Translations under genes and position numbers: made by a program
Source of the DNA: Candidatus Atribacteria bacterium 1244-E10-H5-B2
Lineage (GTDB): Bacteria > Atribacterota > JS1 > SB-45 > 34-128
NCBI GenBank assembly: GCA_003575245.1
Contig: NMQN01000512.1
Span: 1 to 6,361 of the forward strand
Reading direction: 5' to 3'
DNA length: 6,361 nucleotides
The notes under the pieces: generated by a model
Told to the model about the DNA's origin: nothing
Database searches by the model: none
Seen by the model: the letters and a program-made list of their open reading frames with translations, nothing else
Shown here: positions 1-6,356 of the stretch, in pieces
Layout: each line of letters opens with the position of its first letter
How positions within the stretch are numbered: position 1 is the stretch's first letter

Positions 1-937
1 TATTCCCTTAGGTACACTTACTTGTATTACTGGAGTATCTGGTTCCGGGAAAAGTACTTTGGTTGAGGAGACCTTGTATAAAGCTTTAATCAAAAAAATT
101 TATCAGAGCAGAGTTCATCCTGGTGATTATGATAAGATTGAAGGAATAGAAAATGTTGATAAAGTGATAATTATCGATCAATCACCAATAGGCAGAACTT
201 CTCGCTCTAATCCTGCTACTTACACTGGGGCTTTTACACCGATTAGAGAAATATTTTCCAGGACAAAAGAAGCTAAAATTAGAGGATATAAAGCGGGTAG
301 ATTTAGCTTCAATGTAAAAGGTGGAAGATGTGAGGCCTGTCAGGGTGGAGGGATAGTGAAGATTGAGATGTATTTTTTACCTGATGTATATATACTTTGT
401 GAAGTTTGTAAAGGCCAAAGATTCAATCGTGAAACTTTAGATATAAAATATAAGAGTAAAAATATAGCTCAGGTGTTAGATATGACTGTTGAAGAAGCTG
501 TGGAATTTTTTGCAGCAATCCCTACGATAAAAAGAAAATTACATACTTTATATGATGTAGGATTAAGATATATAAAATTAGGACAATCAGCCACCACTCT
601 ATCCGGTGGTGAAGCGCAAAGAGTGAAATTAGCTAAAGAATTAAGTATTAAAAGTACAGGAAGAACCATATACCTTTTAGATGAGCCTACCACTGGTCTG
701 CATTTTGATGATGTGAAAAAATTACTCGATGTTTTAGATAGGTTGGTAGAAGCTGGGAATACAGTTATGGTAATTGAACATAACTTAGAAGTAATTAAAT
801 CGGCAGATCATATTATTGATCTTGGTCCGGGAGGGGGAGAAGAGGGAGGAAGAGTTGTGGCCAAGGGAACTCCCGAAGAAATAGCTCGTAATAAAAAATC
901 ATTTACTGGAGAATTTTTAAAAAAAGCATTGAATTAG
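1..937 (+). CDS. uvrA: UvrA, excinuclease ABC subunit A (C-terminal part, 5' end outside window)
   Basis: This is the DNA-damage-recognition ATPase of nucleotide excision repair, which works as a dimer with UvrB and then hands over to UvrC. The reading frame is open from base 2, so 311 C-terminal codons of a protein usually about 940 residues long are present; the TTG at 59 is an internal Leu codon, not a start. The visible part is the second ABC module. It has a Walker A motif GVSGSGKST at 32-58, a zinc module with CEAC at 329-340 and CEVC at 398-409 (C-X2-C-X19-C-X2-C), the ABC signature [15 protein letters not shown] from about 599, Walker [13 protein letters not shown] around 671-706, and the H-loop VIEHNLEVI from about 773. 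All key residues are intact. The TAG stop (935-937) lies inside the first heptamer of a repeat array. uvrC begins 63 bases downstream, so co-transcription is likely. Confidence 0.98.
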
Positions 938-966
938 TCGTTAGTGAATAGTGAATAGTCGTTAGT
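932..966 (+). repeat. Heptamer array, GAATAGT/CGTTAGT family, five units
   Basis: Five consecutive seven-base units lie here without a break: AATTAGT at 932, CGTTAGT at 939, GAATAGT at 946 and 953, and CGTTAGT at 960. The stop codon of uvrA is within the first unit. The first 19 bases (932-950) occur exactly, in reverse complement, at 3499-3517. The rest of the gap to uvrC contains a weak four-base stem (972-975 with 981-984) and the AAAGGA ribosome-binding site at 989-994, six bases before the uvrC start. Confidence 0.85.
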
Positions 967-2997: not shown

Positions 2998-3000
2998 TTC

Positions 3001-3032
3001 CGTATCTCGTATCTCGTGAATCGTATCTCGTA
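3001..3032 (+). repeat. Heptamer array, CGTATCT family
   Basis: About four and a half units of CGTATCT lie head to tail from 3001, the third being a variant (CGTGAAT at 3015). This array opens the 742-base gap and starts three bases after the stop of the carbonic-anhydrase-like gene. Units of the same family appear in reverse orientation near the far end of the gap (3439-3459), so the two could pair. Confidence 0.85.
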
Positions 3033-3036
3033 AGAA

Positions 3037-3060
3037 TTAGTTACTTGGTTAGCTAGTTAA
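3037..3060 (+). repeat. Octamer array, TTAGTTAC/TTGGTTAG family, three units
   Basis: Three eight-base units fit the consensus YTRGTTAN, starting at 3037, 3045 and 3053. The same octamer family recurs in this gap at 3251-3290 and, rotated by one base, at 3633-3729, always in the same orientation. The array runs into a GAAAA stretch that introduces the next heptamer block, as the copy at 3283-3300 also does. Confidence 0.75.
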
Positions 3061-3066
3061 GAAAAA

Positions 3067-3094
3067 GAAGTTAGAATTCAGAAGTCAGAATGAA
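3067..3094 (+). repeat. Heptamer array, GAATTCA/GAAGTCA family, four units
   Basis: Four units begin at 3067, 3074, 3081 and 3088, each starting with GAA and mostly ending in CA or TA. This purine-rich family differs in sequence from the CGTATCT family but has the same period of seven. It is followed by about 30 bases (3095-3123) in which I see no clear units. Confidence 0.75.
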
Positions 3095-3123
3095 AAAACA
3101 GAAATGTCATTGTGAAAAAGATA

Positions 3124-3175
3124 GAATCCGGGAGCCAGAAGTCAGAATAAATTAGTATCGTGTATCGAGTATCGC
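3124..3175 (+). repeat. Composite heptamer block: GAAGTCA units joined to GTATCGN units
   Basis: Four GAAGTCA-type units (3124, 3131, 3138, 3145) are followed, after a short ATTAGT-like join, by three GTATCGN units at 3155, 3162 and 3169. The order GAAGNCA block, then TTAGT join, then GTATCGA block recurs at 3298-3351, 5289-5323 and 6277-6304. Bases 3154-3174 match the reverse complement of 3439-3459 at 19 of 21 positions. Confidence 0.8.
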
Positions 3176-3194
3176 TTTTCGCGTGAAGAAAATA

Positions 3195-3242
3195 GAAATC
3201 AGGAGCAAGGAACCAGAGAGTCATGAGCGCGTAGCGTTTAGA
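3195..3242 (+). repeat. Degenerate GAAATCA/GGAACCA heptamers followed by GAGCGCG/TAGCGTT units
   Basis: Purine-rich units at 3195, 3202, 3209 and a slightly longer one at 3216-3223 continue the GAAGTCA family. They are followed by two to three units around 3225-3242 that resemble the TAGAGCG/TATAGCG array at 5231-5265. Degeneracy is higher here than in neighbouring blocks, so the boundaries are approximate. Confidence 0.55.
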
Positions 3243-3250
3243 GGACACAT

Positions 3251-3290
3251 TTAGTTAGCTGGTTAGTTGGTTACCTGATTAATTAGTTAA
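3251..3290 (+). repeat. Octamer array, TTAGTTAG/CTGGTTAG family, five units
   Basis: Five uninterrupted eight-base units start at 3251, 3259, 3267, 3275 and 3283. All fit YTRGTTAN except the fourth, which differs at one position (CTGATTAA). The array is the clearest evidence that this family has a true period of eight rather than seven. Confidence 0.85.
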
Positions 3291-3297
3291 GAAAATA

Positions 3298-3389
3298 GAA
3301 TAAAGAAGCCAGAAGCCAAATTAGTATATAGTATCGAGTATAGTATATAGTAAGAAATTCAGAATCCGGTAGTTAGAATTTAGAACAAA
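3298..3389 (+). repeat. Long composite heptamer block (GAAGCCA, AATTAGT, ATATAGT, GAATTTA units)
   Basis: Units run almost continuously in steps of seven. GAATAAA and two GAAGCCA units (3298-3318) pass in register into AATTAGT (3319), ATATAGT (3326) and ATCGAGT (3333). A five-base truncated unit and another ATATAGT (3345) follow, and then purine-rich GAA units resume from 3354 to 3389. Bases 3311-3334 are identical to 5288-5311 in the next gap, a 24-base direct repeat. From 3390 to 3438 only AT-rich sequence without clear units is seen. Confidence 0.85.
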
Positions 3390-3438
3390 ATAAGTCTAAG
3401 ATAAAAAGTAAAAAATTACGGAATCTTTACTCAATGCC

Positions 3439-3495
3439 CGATACTCGATACGGGATACTATAATATTATACTATACGCTAAACGCTCTACGCTAG
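3439..3495 (-). repeat. Inverted heptamer array: CGATACT units then CTATACG units
   Basis: On the plus strand three units read CGATACT, CGATACG and GGATACT (3439-3459). A 12-base perfect palindrome of TATAATATTATA type follows at about 3459-3470, and then CTATACG, CTAAACG and CTCTACG (3471-3491) with a partial unit. These are the reverse complements of the AGTATCG and CGTATAG families found at the 5' sides of the gaps. The block therefore faces the arrays at 3001-3032 and 3155-3175. Confidence 0.8.
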
Positions 3496-3498
3496 TTT

Positions 3499-3517
3499 TA
3501 TTCACTAACGACTAATT
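3499..3517 (-). repeat. Inverted copy of the uvrA-downstream heptamers
   Basis: These 19 bases are the exact reverse complement of 932-950 (AATTAGT, CGTTAGT and most of GAATAGT). The copy closes the repeat-dense part of the gap. The promoter candidate begins four bases downstream. Confidence 0.85.
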
Positions 3518-3520
3518 TAT

Positions 3521-3550
3521 TTGTAAAATATTTAAAAAAATGTATATAAT
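3521..3550 (+). promoter_or_regulatory. Candidate sigma-70-type promoter for the HARE-HTH nuclease-like gene
   Basis: TTGTAA (3521-3526) and a perfect TATAAT (3545-3550) are separated by 18 bases. The site lies in the only repeat-free island of the gap, in the orientation of the downstream gene. A transcript would start near 3557 and carry a leader of roughly 180 bases containing the octamer array. In AT-rich DNA chance matches are common, so this is a candidate only. Confidence 0.5.
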
Positions 3551-3579
3551 AAAGAAAGTAAAATTCTAAACAGTATCAA

Positions 3580-3600
3580 AATAATTTTTTCAAAATTATT
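3580..3600. other. AT-only perfect hairpin in the leader
   Basis: Nine bases AATAATTTT at 3580-3588 are perfectly complementary to 3592-3600, with a three-base loop. A second short inverted repeat, CTATAA with TTATAG, sits at 3606-3623. With no GC in the stem it is unlikely to be an efficient intrinsic terminator. It may be a weak leader structure or chance in AT-rich sequence. Confidence 0.35.
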
Positions 3601-3632
3601 ATCAGCTATAACTATTATTATAGAATGGATAA

Positions 3633-3729
3633 ATTGGTTAATTGGCAAACCGGGTTAATCGGTCAATTGGTGAATAGTTGAGTTGGCTAATTGGTAAATC
3701 GATTAATTGGATAATCAGTTGATTGGAGG
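3633..3729 (+). repeat. Twelve-unit octamer array (ATTGGTTA family) ending in the ribosome-binding site
   Basis: Twelve consecutive units, eleven of eight bases and one of nine (3649-3657), begin with ATTGG or a close variant: ATTGGTTA at 3633, ATTGGCAA at 3641, ATTGGTGA at 3666, ATTGGTAA at 3690, ATTGGATA at 3706. The last unit, ATTGGAGG at 3722-3729, contains the Shine-Dalgarno sequence GGAGG (3725-3729), ten bases before the ATG of the next gene. It is the same family as the octamers at 3037 and 3251, shifted by one base in phase. It would form most of the 5' leader of the downstream mRNA. Confidence 0.85.
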
Positions 3730-3739
3730 TTAGAGACTT

Positions 3740-5230
3740 ATGAAACATAAATCAGTTGCTGACGGTGCTTATGAAATATTGATCAAACATAAAAAACCGT
3801 TGCATTATCGGCAAATTACTAAAGAGTTGACAAAAATAAGGCCGTTAAAGGTTAAGGAACCCTACTATGCTGTAAACGCCTCTATGAGTGGAGACAAAAG
3901 ATTTACGAGGATAAAAAGAGGAGTATGGGGTTTGGTAAAATGGCAATATAAAGATGCAAACATTAAGTATTCCCTCACCAGTTATTGTTTAAAAGACGGT
4001 ACCATGTTTTTAACCAGTTATATGAGACCCTTTTTTCCCAAAGAAGAAAATGCCGTTGAAATTACCTTTATAGACAAAGAAGGAAATGAAATAGAAGCAA
4101 TAGTAAATAATGATCTCAATTGTTTAGTTGGACTAAAAGAATGGTATGAAAAGAAAAAACTGAAAGTAAACGATATTATTTTTGTTGGTCTTATTGACTA
4201 TGATAGAAAAAGATACTTTTTGGTAACAGAAGATGAGGCCAAGATAGAACCTCAGGACGATTTAAGTGAAAAAATATTTAAAATATTGCAGGAAGCAGGA
4301 CGTTCTCTAACTTATAAAGAAATATGTGAAAGGGTATTAGAGGTAGAAGTAAACGAAGAAAATTTATTTTCTAAATATATTGACAATATTTTGAGAAAAG
4401 ACCTCCGGTTTATCGAAAATAAAGAAGAAATGTGGGGTCTCTTTGATTGGTTGAGTGAAATTGAAAAACTGCAATTAAAACTGAAAAATTCTGAAGATAA
4501 CGAAAGTCTTAAAAAATTACTTCAAAAGGTCTTTGAATTTTTGGGTTTTGAGACTTCTATTGTATTAGAAGTAAAAGCATCTTTTATTTTAGCAAAAGCA
4601 TTATTAGATTATAAAACGTACAATTTAATTATTGATGCAAAGTTATCAGATGAAAAAAGCGAAAAAATACAAAAGTATGAACATTGGAGCGAGTTGAGCA
4701 AGGTAAAAGAGGAAACAAAATCAGATTATTCGGTAATTGTTTCTCCAAATTTCGATTATGATAAACTACGCCGAAAAACAGATAAGAACAAAGTTATGTT
4801 GTTTAAGTTGAAGTGGTTATGCGATCTTATAGAAGAACACGATAAATTACCTTTTTCTTTAAGTAATTTGAAATCAATTTTTTCAGCAGATAATTCTGTT
4901 AAGAATAATATTTTTAGATTATTTGAAAAAAGAAAAATACTCTATAACAAAACAAAACTGATTAATATTATTATTAATTTATTACACGAGAATAGTGGTA
5001 AAAAACTTTATCTTAATGTAGAATCGCTAACTAAAATAATTAATCAAAAAACTGATGCATACATTGGGTTTAAAGGAGTGCAAGAATATGAAGTAGAAGA
5101 AATTACTAAAATATTTTCCTTGGAGCCATTTAATATAATACAAAAAACCGAAATGGGAAGCATTGTATTAAACTTTAAACCGGAATTAGCAAAAGAAAGA
5201 TTAAATAAAGTTATTAAGGAAATGTTTTAG
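3740..5230 (+). CDS. HARE-HTH protein with PD-(D/E)XK (FokI-like) nuclease-like domain
   Basis: No named gene is recognised. Residues about 3-68 look like a HARE-HTH module (VADGAYEILIKHKKPLHYRQI, ending RGVWGLVKW), a winged helix known from RNA polymerase delta subunit and restriction enzymes. Residues about 78-165 are strand-rich, and GLKEWYEKKKLKVNDIIF resembles B3-type pseudobarrels (tentative). Residues about 174-237 repeat the HARE pattern (LSEKIFKILQEAGRSLTYKEI, ending MWGLFDW). Residues about 255-380 follow a PD-(D/E)XK pattern recalling the FokI cleavage domain: LGF at 268-270, IIDAK at 297-301, then Q311 and Y313, SVIVSPNF at 331-338, and a helical tail. The first catalytic acid is uncertain: D290 is only nine residues before D299, and the FokI PD position appears to be Ala/Lys. 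The last about 110 residues match nothing I know. No signal peptide or membrane segment is visible, so it is cytoplasmic. GGAGG lies ten bases before ATG. A restriction, DNA-modification-sensing or regulatory role is inferred; no methyltransferase is nearby. Confidence 0.8.
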   Translation: MKHKSVADGAYEILIKHKKPLHYRQITKELTKIRPLKVKEPYYAVNASMSGDKRFTRIKRGVWGLVKWQYKDANIKYSLTSYCLKDGTMFLTSYMRPFFPKEENAVEITFIDKEGNEIEAIVNNDLNCLVGLKEWYEKKKLKVNDIIFVGLIDYDRKRYFLVTEDEAKIEPQDDLSEKIFKILQEAGRSLTYKEICERVLEVEVNEENLFSKYIDNILRKDLRFIENKEEMWGLFDWLSEIEKLQLKLKNSEDNESLKKLLQKVFEFLGFETSIVLEVKASFILAKALLDYKTYNLIIDAKLSDEKSEKIQKYEHWSELSKVKEETKSDYSVIVSPNFDYDKLRRKTDKNKVMLFKLKWLCDLIEEHDKLPFSLSNLKSIFSADNSVKNNIFRLFEKRKILYNKTKLINIIINLLHENSGKKLYLNVESLTKIINQKTDAYIGFKGVQEYEVEEITKIFSLEPFNIIQKTEMGSIVLNFKPELAKERLNKVIKEMF

Positions 5231-5265
5231 TATAGTGTAGAGCGGGTAGCGTATAGCGTAGAGTT
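5231..5265 (+). repeat. Heptamer array, TATAGCG/TAGAGCG family, five units
   Basis: Five units start at 5231, 5238, 5245, 5252 and 5259, directly after the TAG stop of the nuclease-like gene. In the shifted phase the stop itself sits in a TTTTAGT unit. The core 5247-5260 (14 bases) is exactly complementary to 5541-5554 at the other end of the gap. Confidence 0.8.
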
Positions 5266-5288
5266 AGATAAAAAGAATACAAAATCTA

Positions 5289-5323
5289 GAAGCCAAATTA
5301 GTATATAGTATGTAGTATATTGC
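5289..5323 (+). repeat. Composite heptamer block, GAAGCCA then AATTAGT/ATATAGT units
   Basis: Five in-register units begin at 5289 (GAAGCCA), 5296 (AATTAGT), 5303 (ATATAGT), 5310 (ATGTAGT) and 5317 (ATATTGC). Bases 5288-5311 are identical to 3311-3334, almost 2 kb away on the far side of the nuclease-like gene. This shows that the composite is an interspersed module and not merely local slippage. Confidence 0.85.
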
Positions 5324-5537
5324 AAAGAAAATAAAAGAAAAAAGTAAGGACCTATTTCATATGCCTCTATGTCTTCATCATTTGTTATTCATACCTTCAC
5401 GGGAATGACATAAGACAATATGAATGACAGAAATTAGCAGGAATTACAATGATAAACAAAAATAGCAGAATATTAACTTATTGAGAATTTATCAAAAGAA
5501 GTTGGTAGCATGTTATACAGAATGATTTATCTTATAC
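5324..5537. other. Repeat-poor part of the second long gap
   Basis: These 214 bases show no open reading frame of note, no RNA gene I recognise and little heptamer structure. They contain two GAATGACA copies (5403-5410 and about 5432-5439), the first within CGGGAATGACA. That resembles fragments of interspersed repeats seen in various bacteria, but two short copies prove nothing. A weak promoter candidate lies near the right end. Confidence 0.5.
5511..5519 (+). promoter_or_regulatory. Weak extended -10 candidate upstream of the metallo-hydrolase gene
   Basis: TGTTATACA gives a TG-n-TATACA arrangement about 80 bases before the start codon. The only -35-like element is TTATCA at 5489-5494, with a 19-base spacer. 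The match is poor and is given only because it is the best candidate in a gap that should contain a promoter if the gene is not transcribed from upstream. Confidence 0.2.
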
Positions 5538-5579
5538 CTATACGCTATACGCTATACGCTATACTATACACGATATACG
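5538..5579 (-). repeat. Inverted heptamer array, CTATACG family, six units
   Basis: Three perfect CTATACG units (5538, 5545, 5552) are followed by three variants to 5579 (CTATACT, ATACACG, ATATACG). They are the reverse complement of the CGTATAG-type array at 5231-5265, so the gap is bounded by facing copies. The array ends just before the AAGGAG ribosome-binding site (5588-5593) of the next gene and would lie in its leader. Confidence 0.88.
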
Positions 5580-5600
5580 AGATAGAGAAGGAGCAAAATC

Positions 5601-6239
5601 ATGAAAATAAAATGGTTAGGGCATTCTTCGTTTTTAATTGAATCTGAAAAAGGAATTAAAATTATCACTGATCCTTTCGATGAAACTCTTGGCTATAAAC
5701 TCCCTCGAATTAAAGTAAACATTGTGACTGTTAGCCACGAACATTTTGACCATAATTTTGTGAGAGGAGTGAGAGGAAGACCGGTAGTTTTTAAAGGTCT
5801 GGTAAATAGAGAATCACATAAAATGGAATTTAGAGGAATATCAGCTTATCATGATAGCGTTTACGGAGGACAGCGAGGACCAAATACTATATTTGTTATA
5901 AAAGCGGATGGATTTAACTTGTGCCACTTAGGTGATTTGGGGCATATTTTAGATTCTGATAAATTAGCAGAGATAGGTACAATAGACATTCTATTTATTC
6001 CTGTGGGAGGATTTTATACCATAGATAACAGTCAAGCCACTCAGATAATTAAAGATATTGAACCTAAGATAGCAATTCCCATGCATTATAAGACGGAGGC
6101 AATTAAATTTTCTATAGACCCAGTAGAAGTGTTTCTATCAAATAAAGATAATGTACAAAGATTAGAATCGTGCGAGTTCGAAATAACAGAGGATAAATTG
6201 CCTAAAAATACCCAAATTTATGTTTTACAATATGAATAG
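5601..6239 (+). CDS. Metallo-beta-lactamase-fold metal-dependent hydrolase (COG2220/UlaG-like type)
   Basis: The 212-residue protein has the metallo-beta-lactamase signature HEHFDH (H46, H48, D50, H51), preceded by the N-terminal GHSSF typical of the Lactamase_B_3 / COG2220 branch (H8). Other conserved-looking residues are H84 (AYHD), H109 and D112 in HLGDLG, IPVGG at 133-137, and the terminal ligand H162 in IPMHYKT. These indicate a two-metal hydrolase site. Length is usual for the compact members of this branch. Substrates vary widely in the family (lactones, phosphodiesters, unknown), so none is assigned. No signal peptide or membrane segment is present, so it is probably cytoplasmic. ATG 5601 has AAGGAG seven bases upstream. 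It stands alone between repeat arrays, with no co-directional gene closer than 370 bases upstream. Its TAG stop lies inside a GAATAGT heptamer. Confidence 0.93.
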   Translation: MKIKWLGHSSFLIESEKGIKIITDPFDETLGYKLPRIKVNIVTVSHEHFDHNFVRGVRGRPVVFKGLVNRESHKMEFRGISAYHDSVYGGQRGPNTIFVIKADGFNLCHLGDLGHILDSDKLAEIGTIDILFIPVGGFYTIDNSQATQIIKDIEPKIAIPMHYKTEAIKFSIDPVEVFLSNKDNVQRLESCEFEITEDKLPKNTQIYVLQYE

Positions 6240-6261
6240 TCTATAGTTATCGTATATCGTA
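6234..6261 (+). repeat. Heptamer array overlapping the end of the metallo-hydrolase gene
   Basis: Four units start at 6234 (GAATAGT), 6241 (CTATAGT), 6248 and 6255 (both TATCGTA). The last sense codon GAA and the TAG stop are part of the first unit, which is identical to units downstream of uvrA at 946 and 953. Confidence 0.75.
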
Positions 6262-6276
6262 AAGAAACAAAATTCA

Positions 6277-6356
6277 GAAGACAAGTTAGTATCGAGTATT
6301 GCGTTATGAAAATAGAATTCAGAAATAAGGAGATAGAATATTATATAGAGGAGATT
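6277..6356 (+). repeat. Composite heptamer block, GAAGACA/AGTTAGT/ATCGAGT then GAATTCA units
   Basis: GAAGACA (6277), AGTTAGT (6284), ATCGAGT (6291) and ATTGCGT (6298) repeat the composite order seen in the earlier gaps. After a short join, purine-rich units follow from 6315 (GAATTCA, GAAATAA, GGAGATA, GAATATT) in steps of seven to about 6356, with increasing degeneracy. Confidence 0.7.
6348..6353 (+). promoter_or_regulatory. Possible ribosome-binding site of the next gene
   Basis: GAGGAG lies eight bases before the right edge, so a start codon immediately beyond the window would be well spaced. It falls within the last degenerate heptamers, as the GGAGG of the nuclease-like gene falls in the last octamer. 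The start codon is not visible. Confidence 0.4.

What the first reader, a model, noticed from the sequence alone, without database searches (positions are those of the whole stretch)
2998..3739. Intergenic DNA built from sequence-distinct repeat families that share a period of 7 (or 8) bases
Directly visible: blocks of CGTATCT, GTATCGN, GAAGCCA/GAATTCA, AATTAGT/ATATAGT and CTATACG units all step by exactly seven bases, often joining in register. The TTAGTTAG/ATTGGTTA family steps by eight. The same families fill parts of every other gap (932-966, 5231-5323, 5538-5579, 6234-6356). Unrelated sequences with one shared period suggest a common generating process and not one ancestral repeat. Heptanucleotide STRR repeats of filamentous cyanobacteria are the nearest known parallel; mixed families in one gap are not something I know to be described.
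Basis: partly seen in the sequence, partly recalled or inferred. Interest (0 to 1): 0.8.

Follow-up and report, generated by a model that had tools for sequence, protein, structure and literature searches.

The report
Outward-pointing seven-base repeat blocks between genes
The gaps between genes in one group of uncultured Atribacterota bacteria hold copied blocks made of seven- and eight-base repeats, and most of the blocks near a gene point away from it, as expected if they are the ends of inserted pieces of DNA.

Summary
The periodicity is real. Lag-7 identity in the window's gap DNA is 0.44 against 0.29 in shuffles (z 11.8), with no excess in coding DNA; lag 8 is a weaker second. The window is Atribacterota; the same words abound in 12 of 50 Atribacterota genomes and are nearly absent from the rest. 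Indels peak at 7 bases, mostly tandem, so unit-length change happens. But many arrays are dispersed copies of fixed words; two, of 32 and 31 bases, are exact in this window, with 298 and 269 matches at up to 2 mismatches. New here is polarity across many families: strand follows the nearest gene edge, not transcription, pointing outward at starts and stops alike (160 of 204; 45 of 48 for the 32-base word). I read the arrays as terminal modules of mosaic, mobile-like elements inserted into short gaps; what moves them is unknown. A one-family version of the polarity is in print for Xanthomonas and Nostoc (PMC4692102).

The parts
935..966 (+). Word W1, exact 32-base copy TAGTCGTTAGTGAATAGTGAATAGTCGTTAGT; begins with the uvrA stop codon TAG and points away from uvrA
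   Evidence: exact match; 298 matches (some overlapping) with up to 2 mismatches in 13 of 50 Atribacterota genomes, reversed control 0
3001..3031 (+). Word W2, exact 31-base copy CGTATCTCGTATCTCGTGAATCGTATCTCGT, three bases after the gamma-carbonic-anhydrase-like gene
   Evidence: exact match; 269 matches with up to 2 mismatches in 12 of 50 genomes, reversed control 0
3037..3060 (+). octamer-like stretch TTAGTTACTTGGTTAGCTAGTTAA
   Evidence: read; similar stretches in L005 and L009 (by eye)
3066..3090 (+). heptamer array AGAAGTC/AGAATTC
3155..3174 (+). heptamer array GTATCGN
3251..3289 (+). octamer array GTTAGCTG/GTTAGTTG
   Evidence: rows of period 8 and 16
3304..3352 (+). heptamer arrays AGAAGCC then TAGTATA/GTATCGA
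3439..3494 (-). heptamer arrays in the opposite polarity: CGATACT (3439-3458) and CTATACG (3471-3494), facing the next gene
3501..3515 (-). TTCACTAACGACTAA, reverse-strand stretch of the W1 family, just before the likely promoter
   Evidence: read; longer forms in L007 and L009 (by eye)
3521..3550 (+). likely promoter of the HARE-HTH gene (TTGTAA, 18-base spacer, TATAAT), alike in orthologous gaps
   Evidence: by eye
3632..3726 (+). octamer array AATTGGTN between likely promoter and start codon
5230..5260 (+). heptamer array GTATAGC after the HARE-HTH gene (overlaps the last base of its stop codon)
5299..5320 (+). heptamer array TAGTATA
5533..5584 (-). heptamer array TATACGC/TATACGA before the MBL-fold gene, opposite polarity
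6248..6261 (+). heptamer array TATCGTA after the MBL-fold gene

Best explanation
The arrays are modules, mostly terminal ones, of composite (mosaic) intergenic elements that spread in one group of Atribacterota by copying into short gaps between genes in either orientation. Each family has a fixed direction relative to the element's interior, so wherever an element lands its end faces the nearest gene and the array points away from it, at starts and stops alike. After arrival the arrays gain and lose whole 7- or 8-base units by slippage or unequal recombination; this keeps the period and makes hybrid arrays. Shown: periodicity, dispersed fixed words, shared composites, polarity, 7-base indels, long and short versions of the same gap. 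Inferred: that the copying is insertion of a mobile-like element, and that the short gap is the older state. Not known: the enzyme or recombination route.
For: Dispersal: W1 298 and W2 269 matches in 13 and 12 of 50 genomes, reversed words 0. 1,028 similar stretches among 163 gaps of G002 against 2 among 60 gaps of the repeat-poor G040. A 246-base composite lies in opposite orientations in two different gaps at 91% identity, with the W1 end after a stop in one and upstream of a start in the other; the two copies differ, among other changes, by one 7-base unit inside an array. Polarity: strand predicted from position in the gap, leave-one-genome-out, 160 of 204 at lag 7 (tandem+ 78/105, tandem- 70/84, convergent 5/6, divergent 7/9; by genome G002 72/89, G003 6/9, G007 19/23, G008 35/49, G038 28/34) and 38 of 48 at lag 8, while a transcription-direction rule gets 107 of 183. 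One tract per family per orthologous gap: 166 of 212; 300 permutations average 0.498, maximum 0.633. Decay with distance from the gene: 89/101 under 40 bases, 45/58 at 40-100, 26/45 beyond. W1: 45 of 48 outward, 27/29 at stops and 18/19 at starts, median 13.5 bases from the gene. W1-family pairs within 70 bases of a gene edge: 69 gap sides outward, 1 inward, over 502 gaps. In three genomes all 16 gaps with both orientations run plus then minus. Outside W1 conservation ends within about 5 bases, and inside it interiors differ. Long and short versions of the same gap in related genomes. Unit indels.
Against: No target-site duplication or clean empty site was found; the one alignable case (L005, by eye) looks like replacement of about 19 bases, not pure insertion. 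Both ends of a gap carry W1-type caps only a little more often than chance (6 against 2.4 expected, p 0.024), so there is no strict pair of inverted ends. The CGTATCT family follows the rule weakly (14 of 22; W2 16 of 24). G003 taken alone is not significant (6 of 9). No specific enzyme was found: Y1 transposase genes occur also outside the group, and 1 of 19 examined sits beside a GTAGGGG palindrome. TAGTGAA arrays in other hosts' viral contigs show, by eye, the opposite direction upstream of starts.
Confidence: 0.6

Rival explanations
1. Local replication slippage with a preference for 7-base steps makes each array in place, the preference being set by the polymerase footprint (a hypothesis that PMC4692102 reports from earlier work). 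No element moves.
For: One period for distinct units; 7-base indels mostly tandem; heptamer excess known elsewhere (PMC4692102). No genome of the phylum search reaches the MutS1 cut-off (0 of 50, against 11 of 14 control genomes), which may be permissive, though repeat-poor genomes share that.
Against: The same unit orders recur at dozens of places; composites of up to about 250 bases are shared between gaps; slippage does not predict outward polarity at both gene ends.
Confidence: 0.15
2. Arrays are selected boundary elements: a binding site or RNA signal that works pointing away from genes and is copied by recombination because it is useful (insulator, terminator or decay signal).
For: Polarity at both gene ends; in four repeat-bearing genomes sense RNA of tandem gaps has median folding z -1.59 to -2.40, against -1.29 in G040.
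Against: The words are nearly absent from most Atribacterota and several array-bearing gaps are short elsewhere; family content of orthologous gaps turns over (shared fraction 0.26 against 0.13 for shuffled partners); the folding difference is small and can come from the palindromes nearby.
Confidence: 0.15
3. Non-allelic gene conversion or template switching at shared words (TAGT, GTAT) spreads patches from gap to gap, without a transposase.
For: Modular mosaics joined to different interiors; a replacement-like change in L005.
Against: Needs prior homology in the receiving gap, but gaps of 0-60 bases correspond to long array-bearing ones; conservation stops just outside W1.
Confidence: 0.1

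Closest known systems
Heptameric simple-sequence repeats of Xanthomonas (GGGAATC) and Nostoc (GGGGA(C/T)T), PMC4692102 (sections 10 and 16 and passages read)
   Same: Period 7, mostly intergenic, dispersed; [quoted passage not shown] pairs in convergent orientation in Xanthomonas; intergenic patterns vary between close species
   Different: The paper studies one G-rich, quadruplex-capable family per organism; here several heptamer and octamer families without G-runs obey the rule together, as fixed composite words inside larger copied blocks
TAACTGA direct repeats of Beggiatoaceae, Cyanobacteria and Bacteroidetes, PMC4679880 (abstract and sections 8 and 10 read)
   Same: Intergenic heptamers, indels mostly in 7-nt steps between two close Cyanothece strains; mixed heptamers in some genomes (Microcystis, Elizabethkingia)
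   Different: In the BOGUAY genome one favoured word, mostly forward just upstream of starts; here both gene ends, outward, many words (the TAACTGA unit itself is 1 of 190 tracts)
STRR heptamers of filamentous cyanobacteria (name recalled; PMC4692102 mentions three heptanucleotides in Calothrix)
   Same: Several heptamer families in one genome
   Different: No polarity or composite-word description known to me; the original work was not read
BIMEs/REPs, in particular GTAG-tagged palindromes (PMC3733652, passages incl. part of the abstract seen)
   Same: Intergenic mosaic of small modules; GTAGGGG lies in gap DNA of the five examined repeat-bearing genomes at 0.61-2.09 per kb against 0 and 0.06 in two others
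   Different: The heptamer arrays are not palindromes; Y1 transposase genes here are not flanked by them

Membership tests
Heptanucleotide intergenic SSR / STRR-type repeat | tandem units of exactly 7 bases in intergenic DNA, above chance | tested here: met
Heptanucleotide intergenic SSR / STRR-type repeat | copy-number change by whole units | tested here: met
   18 indels of 7 bases, 16 tandem
Heptanucleotide intergenic SSR of the one-family kind | one dominant unit sequence per genome | tested here: not met
   (three genomes pooled): 55 distinct units among 190 lag-7 tracts; the commonest has 25
GGGAATC-type heptamers of Xanthomonas/Nostoc | three or more G in a row per unit (quadruplex-forming) | tested here: not met
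   no unit with 4 or more tracts has GGG or CCC
TAACTGA repeats | unit TAACTGA as the favoured word | tested here: not met
   1 of 190 lag-7 tracts (listed as AACTGAT)
MITE / inverted-terminal-repeat element | paired inverted terminal repeats | tested here: inconclusive
   6 of 502 gaps capped at both ends, 2.4 expected; own-gap fold-back only slightly above other-gap
MITE / inverted-terminal-repeat element | target-site duplication | tested here: inconclusive
   (by eye): no case with both flanks alignable and a clean insertion
MITE / inverted-terminal-repeat element | high copy number, dispersed, in both orientations | tested here: met
REP/BIME mobilised by a RAYT (Y1) transposase | RAYT gene flanked by the repeat | tested here: not met
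   of 20 Y1 places fetched 19 had a called gene; 1 of 19 has GTAGGGG alongside, none the arrays of this finding (one has a CATATTAT, one a TAATAGAT tract)

The most novel reading that the evidence does not exclude
These Atribacterota carry an undescribed class of mobile mosaic element whose common feature is a heptamer-array terminus that joins to many different interiors. The element inserts in either orientation into minimal gaps between genes, so the genome records its insertions as arrays pointing away from genes; the period of 7 is then a property of the copying machinery itself, which would also link the outward heptamers of Xanthomonas, Nostoc and Atribacterota.
Probability: 0.2. Interest if true: 0.8.

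Novelty: new variant of a known kind. Interest (0 to 1): 0.6.

Why it matters
Heptamer excess in bacterial intergenic DNA has been noted without an accepted cause (PMC4692102). A multi-family case in which strand is largely predictable from the nearest gene edge, at both starts and stops, gives a sharp test between slippage, regulation and insertion, and ready-made words (W1, W2) whose gain and loss can be followed in strains.

Tried and rejected
Whole-gap palindrome (fold-back) model: the left part of a gap matches the reverse complement of its own right part only somewhat better than that of other gaps (fraction over threshold 0.30 against 0.17 in G002, 0.28 against 0.12 in G038; 0.17/0.14 in G003, 0.12/0.10 in G007, 0.21/0.19 in G008; repeat-poor G040 shows 0.32/0.20). 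Rejected as the main cause of polarity.

Transcription-direction rule: 107 of 183 at lag 7 and 16 of 39 at lag 8, below the positional rule.

Y1/RAYT transposase, reverse transcriptase and MutS1 loss as group-specific causes: Y1 in 34 of 50 genomes inside and outside the group, RT in 10 of 50, MutS1 above cut-off in 0 of 50. None separates repeat-bearing from other genomes.

Universal heptamer words: CGTATCK arrays occur in 4 viral-contig stretches, but the reversed control pattern occurs in 9, so word sharing across phyla is not special. TAGTGAA arrays occur in 20 viral-contig stretches; in L169, L170 and L176/L179 they lie, by eye and without gene calls, in the opposite polarity upstream of starts, so the sign of the rule is not universal. 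Exact W1 and W2 have no match in viral contigs, and a 76-base stretch around W1 none in plasmids.

Polarity in cyanobacterial plasmid stretches: 12 period-7 tracts, 3 of 8 predictable; too few, no support. Vibrio and Pseudoalteromonas stretches hold 5 period-7 tracts; not usable.

GTAGGGG palindromes follow the left-plus, right-minus order weakly: 87 of 138.

A shared TTAGT insertion target: TAGT lies near 92 of 265 lag-7 tract starts, but TAGT is itself part of many units; not pressed.

Limits: no phylogeny was built, so 'group' means the genomes rich in the words; the kinship of G036 and G040 to it is not known, and G036 gave only 2.7 kb of gap DNA. Genes were called with a simple caller of my own (it gave the window's five genes). 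Family signs were chosen from the window and orthologous loci; learn them without the tested genome or gap (the learning set includes 2 lag-7 and 1 lag-8 tracts of G040). Stretches of five repeat-bearing genomes were examined, not whole genomes; for G003 and G007 the coding fraction found was low (0.72, 0.78). Left out before counting: gaps under 40 bases, tracts whose unit equals its own reverse complement, families with a tied or unseen learned sign. In one search (up to 3 mismatches), 7 of 55 W1 places (6 at contig ends, 1 inside a gene) and 2 of 26 W2 places (contig ends) are outside the polarity counts, and orthologous copies were not removed. The conservation inside W1 is partly by construction (places chosen at up to 3 mismatches); only the fall outside it is informative. 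The aligner under-counts long indels.

Full report
What the window is. The window carries the 3' part of uvrA, then uvrC, a gamma-carbonic-anhydrase-like hexapeptide gene, a HARE-HTH-domain gene and an MBL-fold hydrolase gene, all on the plus strand. UvrC matches 11 of the 16 loci found at 79-95% identity; ten of these are titled Atribacterota/Atribacteria MAGs and one 'bacterium'; the other five (Clostridia, Halobacteriovorax) are at 38-43%. Where contigs reach far enough the gene order is mostly the same. No tRNA and no Rfam family was found. No genome is held for the window.

Lag-7 identity in gap DNA is far above shuffles and absent from coding DNA, with lag 8 second; period-7 tracts cover 24% of 2998-3739 and period-8 tracts 10%, against maxima of 5% and 6% in 200 shuffles. 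In stretches from five other repeat-bearing genomes intergenic period-7 tracts run 1.88, 0.60, 2.85, 0.80 and 2.37 per kb (G008, G003, G002, G038, G007) and coding DNA 0.01-0.04; apart from 8 and the harmonic 14, the other lags from 4 to 15 reach at most 0.25 per kb. G038 has more period 8 (1.06) than period 7. Two other Atribacterota genomes, G036 (2.7 kb of gap DNA only) and G040, have 0 and 0.13.

Distribution. A CGTATCN pattern is found in 18 of 50 Atribacterota genomes; six of these have one to four matches (G037 four, five others one each) and 12 have 13 or more; the reversed pattern has one match in each of eight genomes. W1 is in 13 of 50 (in G037 a single copy) and W2 in 12 of 50; the reversed words are in none. 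Ten of ten UvrC-linked Atribacterota genomes and none of three outgroup genomes hold the TAGTGAA pattern. Intergenic placement was checked only in the fetched stretches.

Fixed words. Chains anchored on TAGT with 7-base steps use two remainders for more than half of the units, CGT (130) and GAA (121) of 439, and the order CGT-GAA-GAA-CGT recurs. This is W1, exact at window 935-966, where its first three bases are the uvrA stop codon. W2 is exact at 3001-3031. Summed over genomes, with up to 2 mismatches and some overlapping matches, W1 has 298 and W2 269 (my sums). Around 54 W1 places a short A+T lead (TAAAT) is partly conserved, and beyond that the outside is not. Inside follow several different modules: AGTTTTCAGTT stretches, GTAG-tagged or other palindromes, GTATCG arrays.

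Copied composites. Within G002, 100 of 163 gaps share 1,028 similar stretches, about equally direct (519) and inverted (509); in G040 there are 2 among 60 gaps. One 246-base block lies in opposite orientations in two gaps at 91% identity. Orthologous gaps differ in length, for example 18 to 396 bases for the HARE-MBL gap (8 genomes) and 396 to 828 for the gCA-HARE gap (7 genomes). In 26 gene pairs one genome has a gap of at most 60 bases and another at least 120; many, not all, of the long versions carry arrays (by eye). Family content of orthologous gaps overlaps more than by chance (0.26 against 0.13 for shuffled partners, 178 pairs), so there is both inheritance and turnover. Indels in similar gap DNA fall with length but rise again at 7 (18, of which 16 tandem), against 7 at 6 and 6 at 8.

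Polarity. On the top strand, outward-type units lie in left halves and their reverse complements in right halves, for both tandem orientations (three genomes: 104 of 128; 16 of 16 two-sided gaps plus then minus). With signs learned from the other genomes: 160 of 204 at lag 7, 38 of 48 at lag 8. With one tract per family per orthologous gap and signs learned from other gaps: 166 of 212, against 0.498 mean and 0.633 maximum in 300 permutations. The rule is strongest next to genes (89 of 101 within 40 bases) and fades beyond 100 (26 of 45); it holds at 3' edges (91 of 125) and 5' edges (69 of 79). W1: 45 of 48 outward, median 13.5 bases from the gene. W1-family pairs within 70 bases of an edge: 69 gap sides outward, 1 inward, in 502 gaps. 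Weak families: CGTATCT (14 of 22) and W2 (16 of 24; 11 of 13 within 60 bases). Stop codons inside W1 cannot explain the rule, since 5' edges obey too.

Reading. If a word is the end of an inserted block and the receiving gap was short, its outer side must face the nearest gene whichever way the block landed. That gives outward polarity at both gene ends, independence from transcription, decay with distance, and the end of conservation just outside W1 with many interiors inside. It does not require paired ends, and pairs are in fact only mildly in excess (6 against 2.4 expected). The step from 'copied block' to 'inserted mobile element' is inference: no target duplication, no enzyme. Y1 transposases, RT and MutS1 do not separate the groups. 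Slippage explains the upkeep of the period and the hybrid arrays, but not the fixed words or the polarity. Sense RNA of tandem gaps folds a little better than shuffles in four repeat-bearing genomes (median z -1.59 to -2.40) but also in G040 (-1.29).

Known work. [quoted passage not shown] It also reports the polymerase-footprint idea for period 7. PMC4679880 (abstract and sections 8 and 10 read) describes TAACTGA repeats, indels mostly of 7 nt, and mixed heptamers in some genomes. PMC3733652 (passages seen) describes GTAG-tagged palindromes. A search for Atribacterota with 'intergenic repeats' gave one tool paper, seen in the listing; in a looser search none of the 15 papers listed mentions Atribacterota. 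Searches on heptamers and intergenic DNA gave these same two relevant papers (with two unrelated ones); three further searches added nothing that I recognised as relevant in their listings. So the period and a one-family polarity are known; the multi-family, composite-word form and its place in Atribacterota I did not find in those searches of an open-access library.

Changes made on checking: W2 starts three bases after the gene; folding was run in four, not five, repeat-bearing genomes; one TAACTGA tract exists; the statement on background lags was narrowed.

Noticed in passing
gaps of L002, L003, L005, L007, L009, L010: GTAGGGG-tagged palindromes with varying self-complementary inner stems; GTAGGGG runs at 0.61-2.09 per kb of gap DNA in five repeat-bearing genomes against 0 and 0.06 in two others. 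They look like GTAG-type REPs.
   Followed up: partly
phylum-wide: No Atribacterota genome of 50 reaches the MutS1 cut-off; 45 have partial matches to the C-terminal part, possibly MutS2-like. Canonical mismatch repair may be missing in the phylum (MAGs, so incomplete).
   Followed up: no
G005 (genome of L005): W1 is 0 forward and 17 reverse, the TAGTGAA pattern 2 and 21, while W2 is 27 and 27; unexplained strand skew, perhaps contig orientation.
   Followed up: no
G038, 398 kb of stretches: 203 tandem-minus gaps against 6 tandem-plus (gaps of 40 bases or more): very strong co-orientation of genes over long contigs.
   Followed up: no
window 3740-5230: HARE-HTH protein of 496 aa passes the NCBIfam cut-off for low-GC RNA polymerase delta by one bit (43 against 42) but is far longer than that 83-position model; function open.
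   Followed up: no
L163, L167, L169, L170, L174, L176, L179 (viral contigs): TAGTGAA arrays, some long, in contigs of 39-63% G+C; in L169, L170 and L176/L179 they read, by eye, towards the start of the adjacent gene, opposite to the rule here.
   Followed up: partly
L148 1495-1656 (Nostoc plasmid): One cyanobacterial gap has GAATTCAGGAGTCAGAAGTCAGAAT on the left and TTCTGAATTCTGTATTCTG on the right: similar words and the same mirror order as in the window's group.
   Followed up: no
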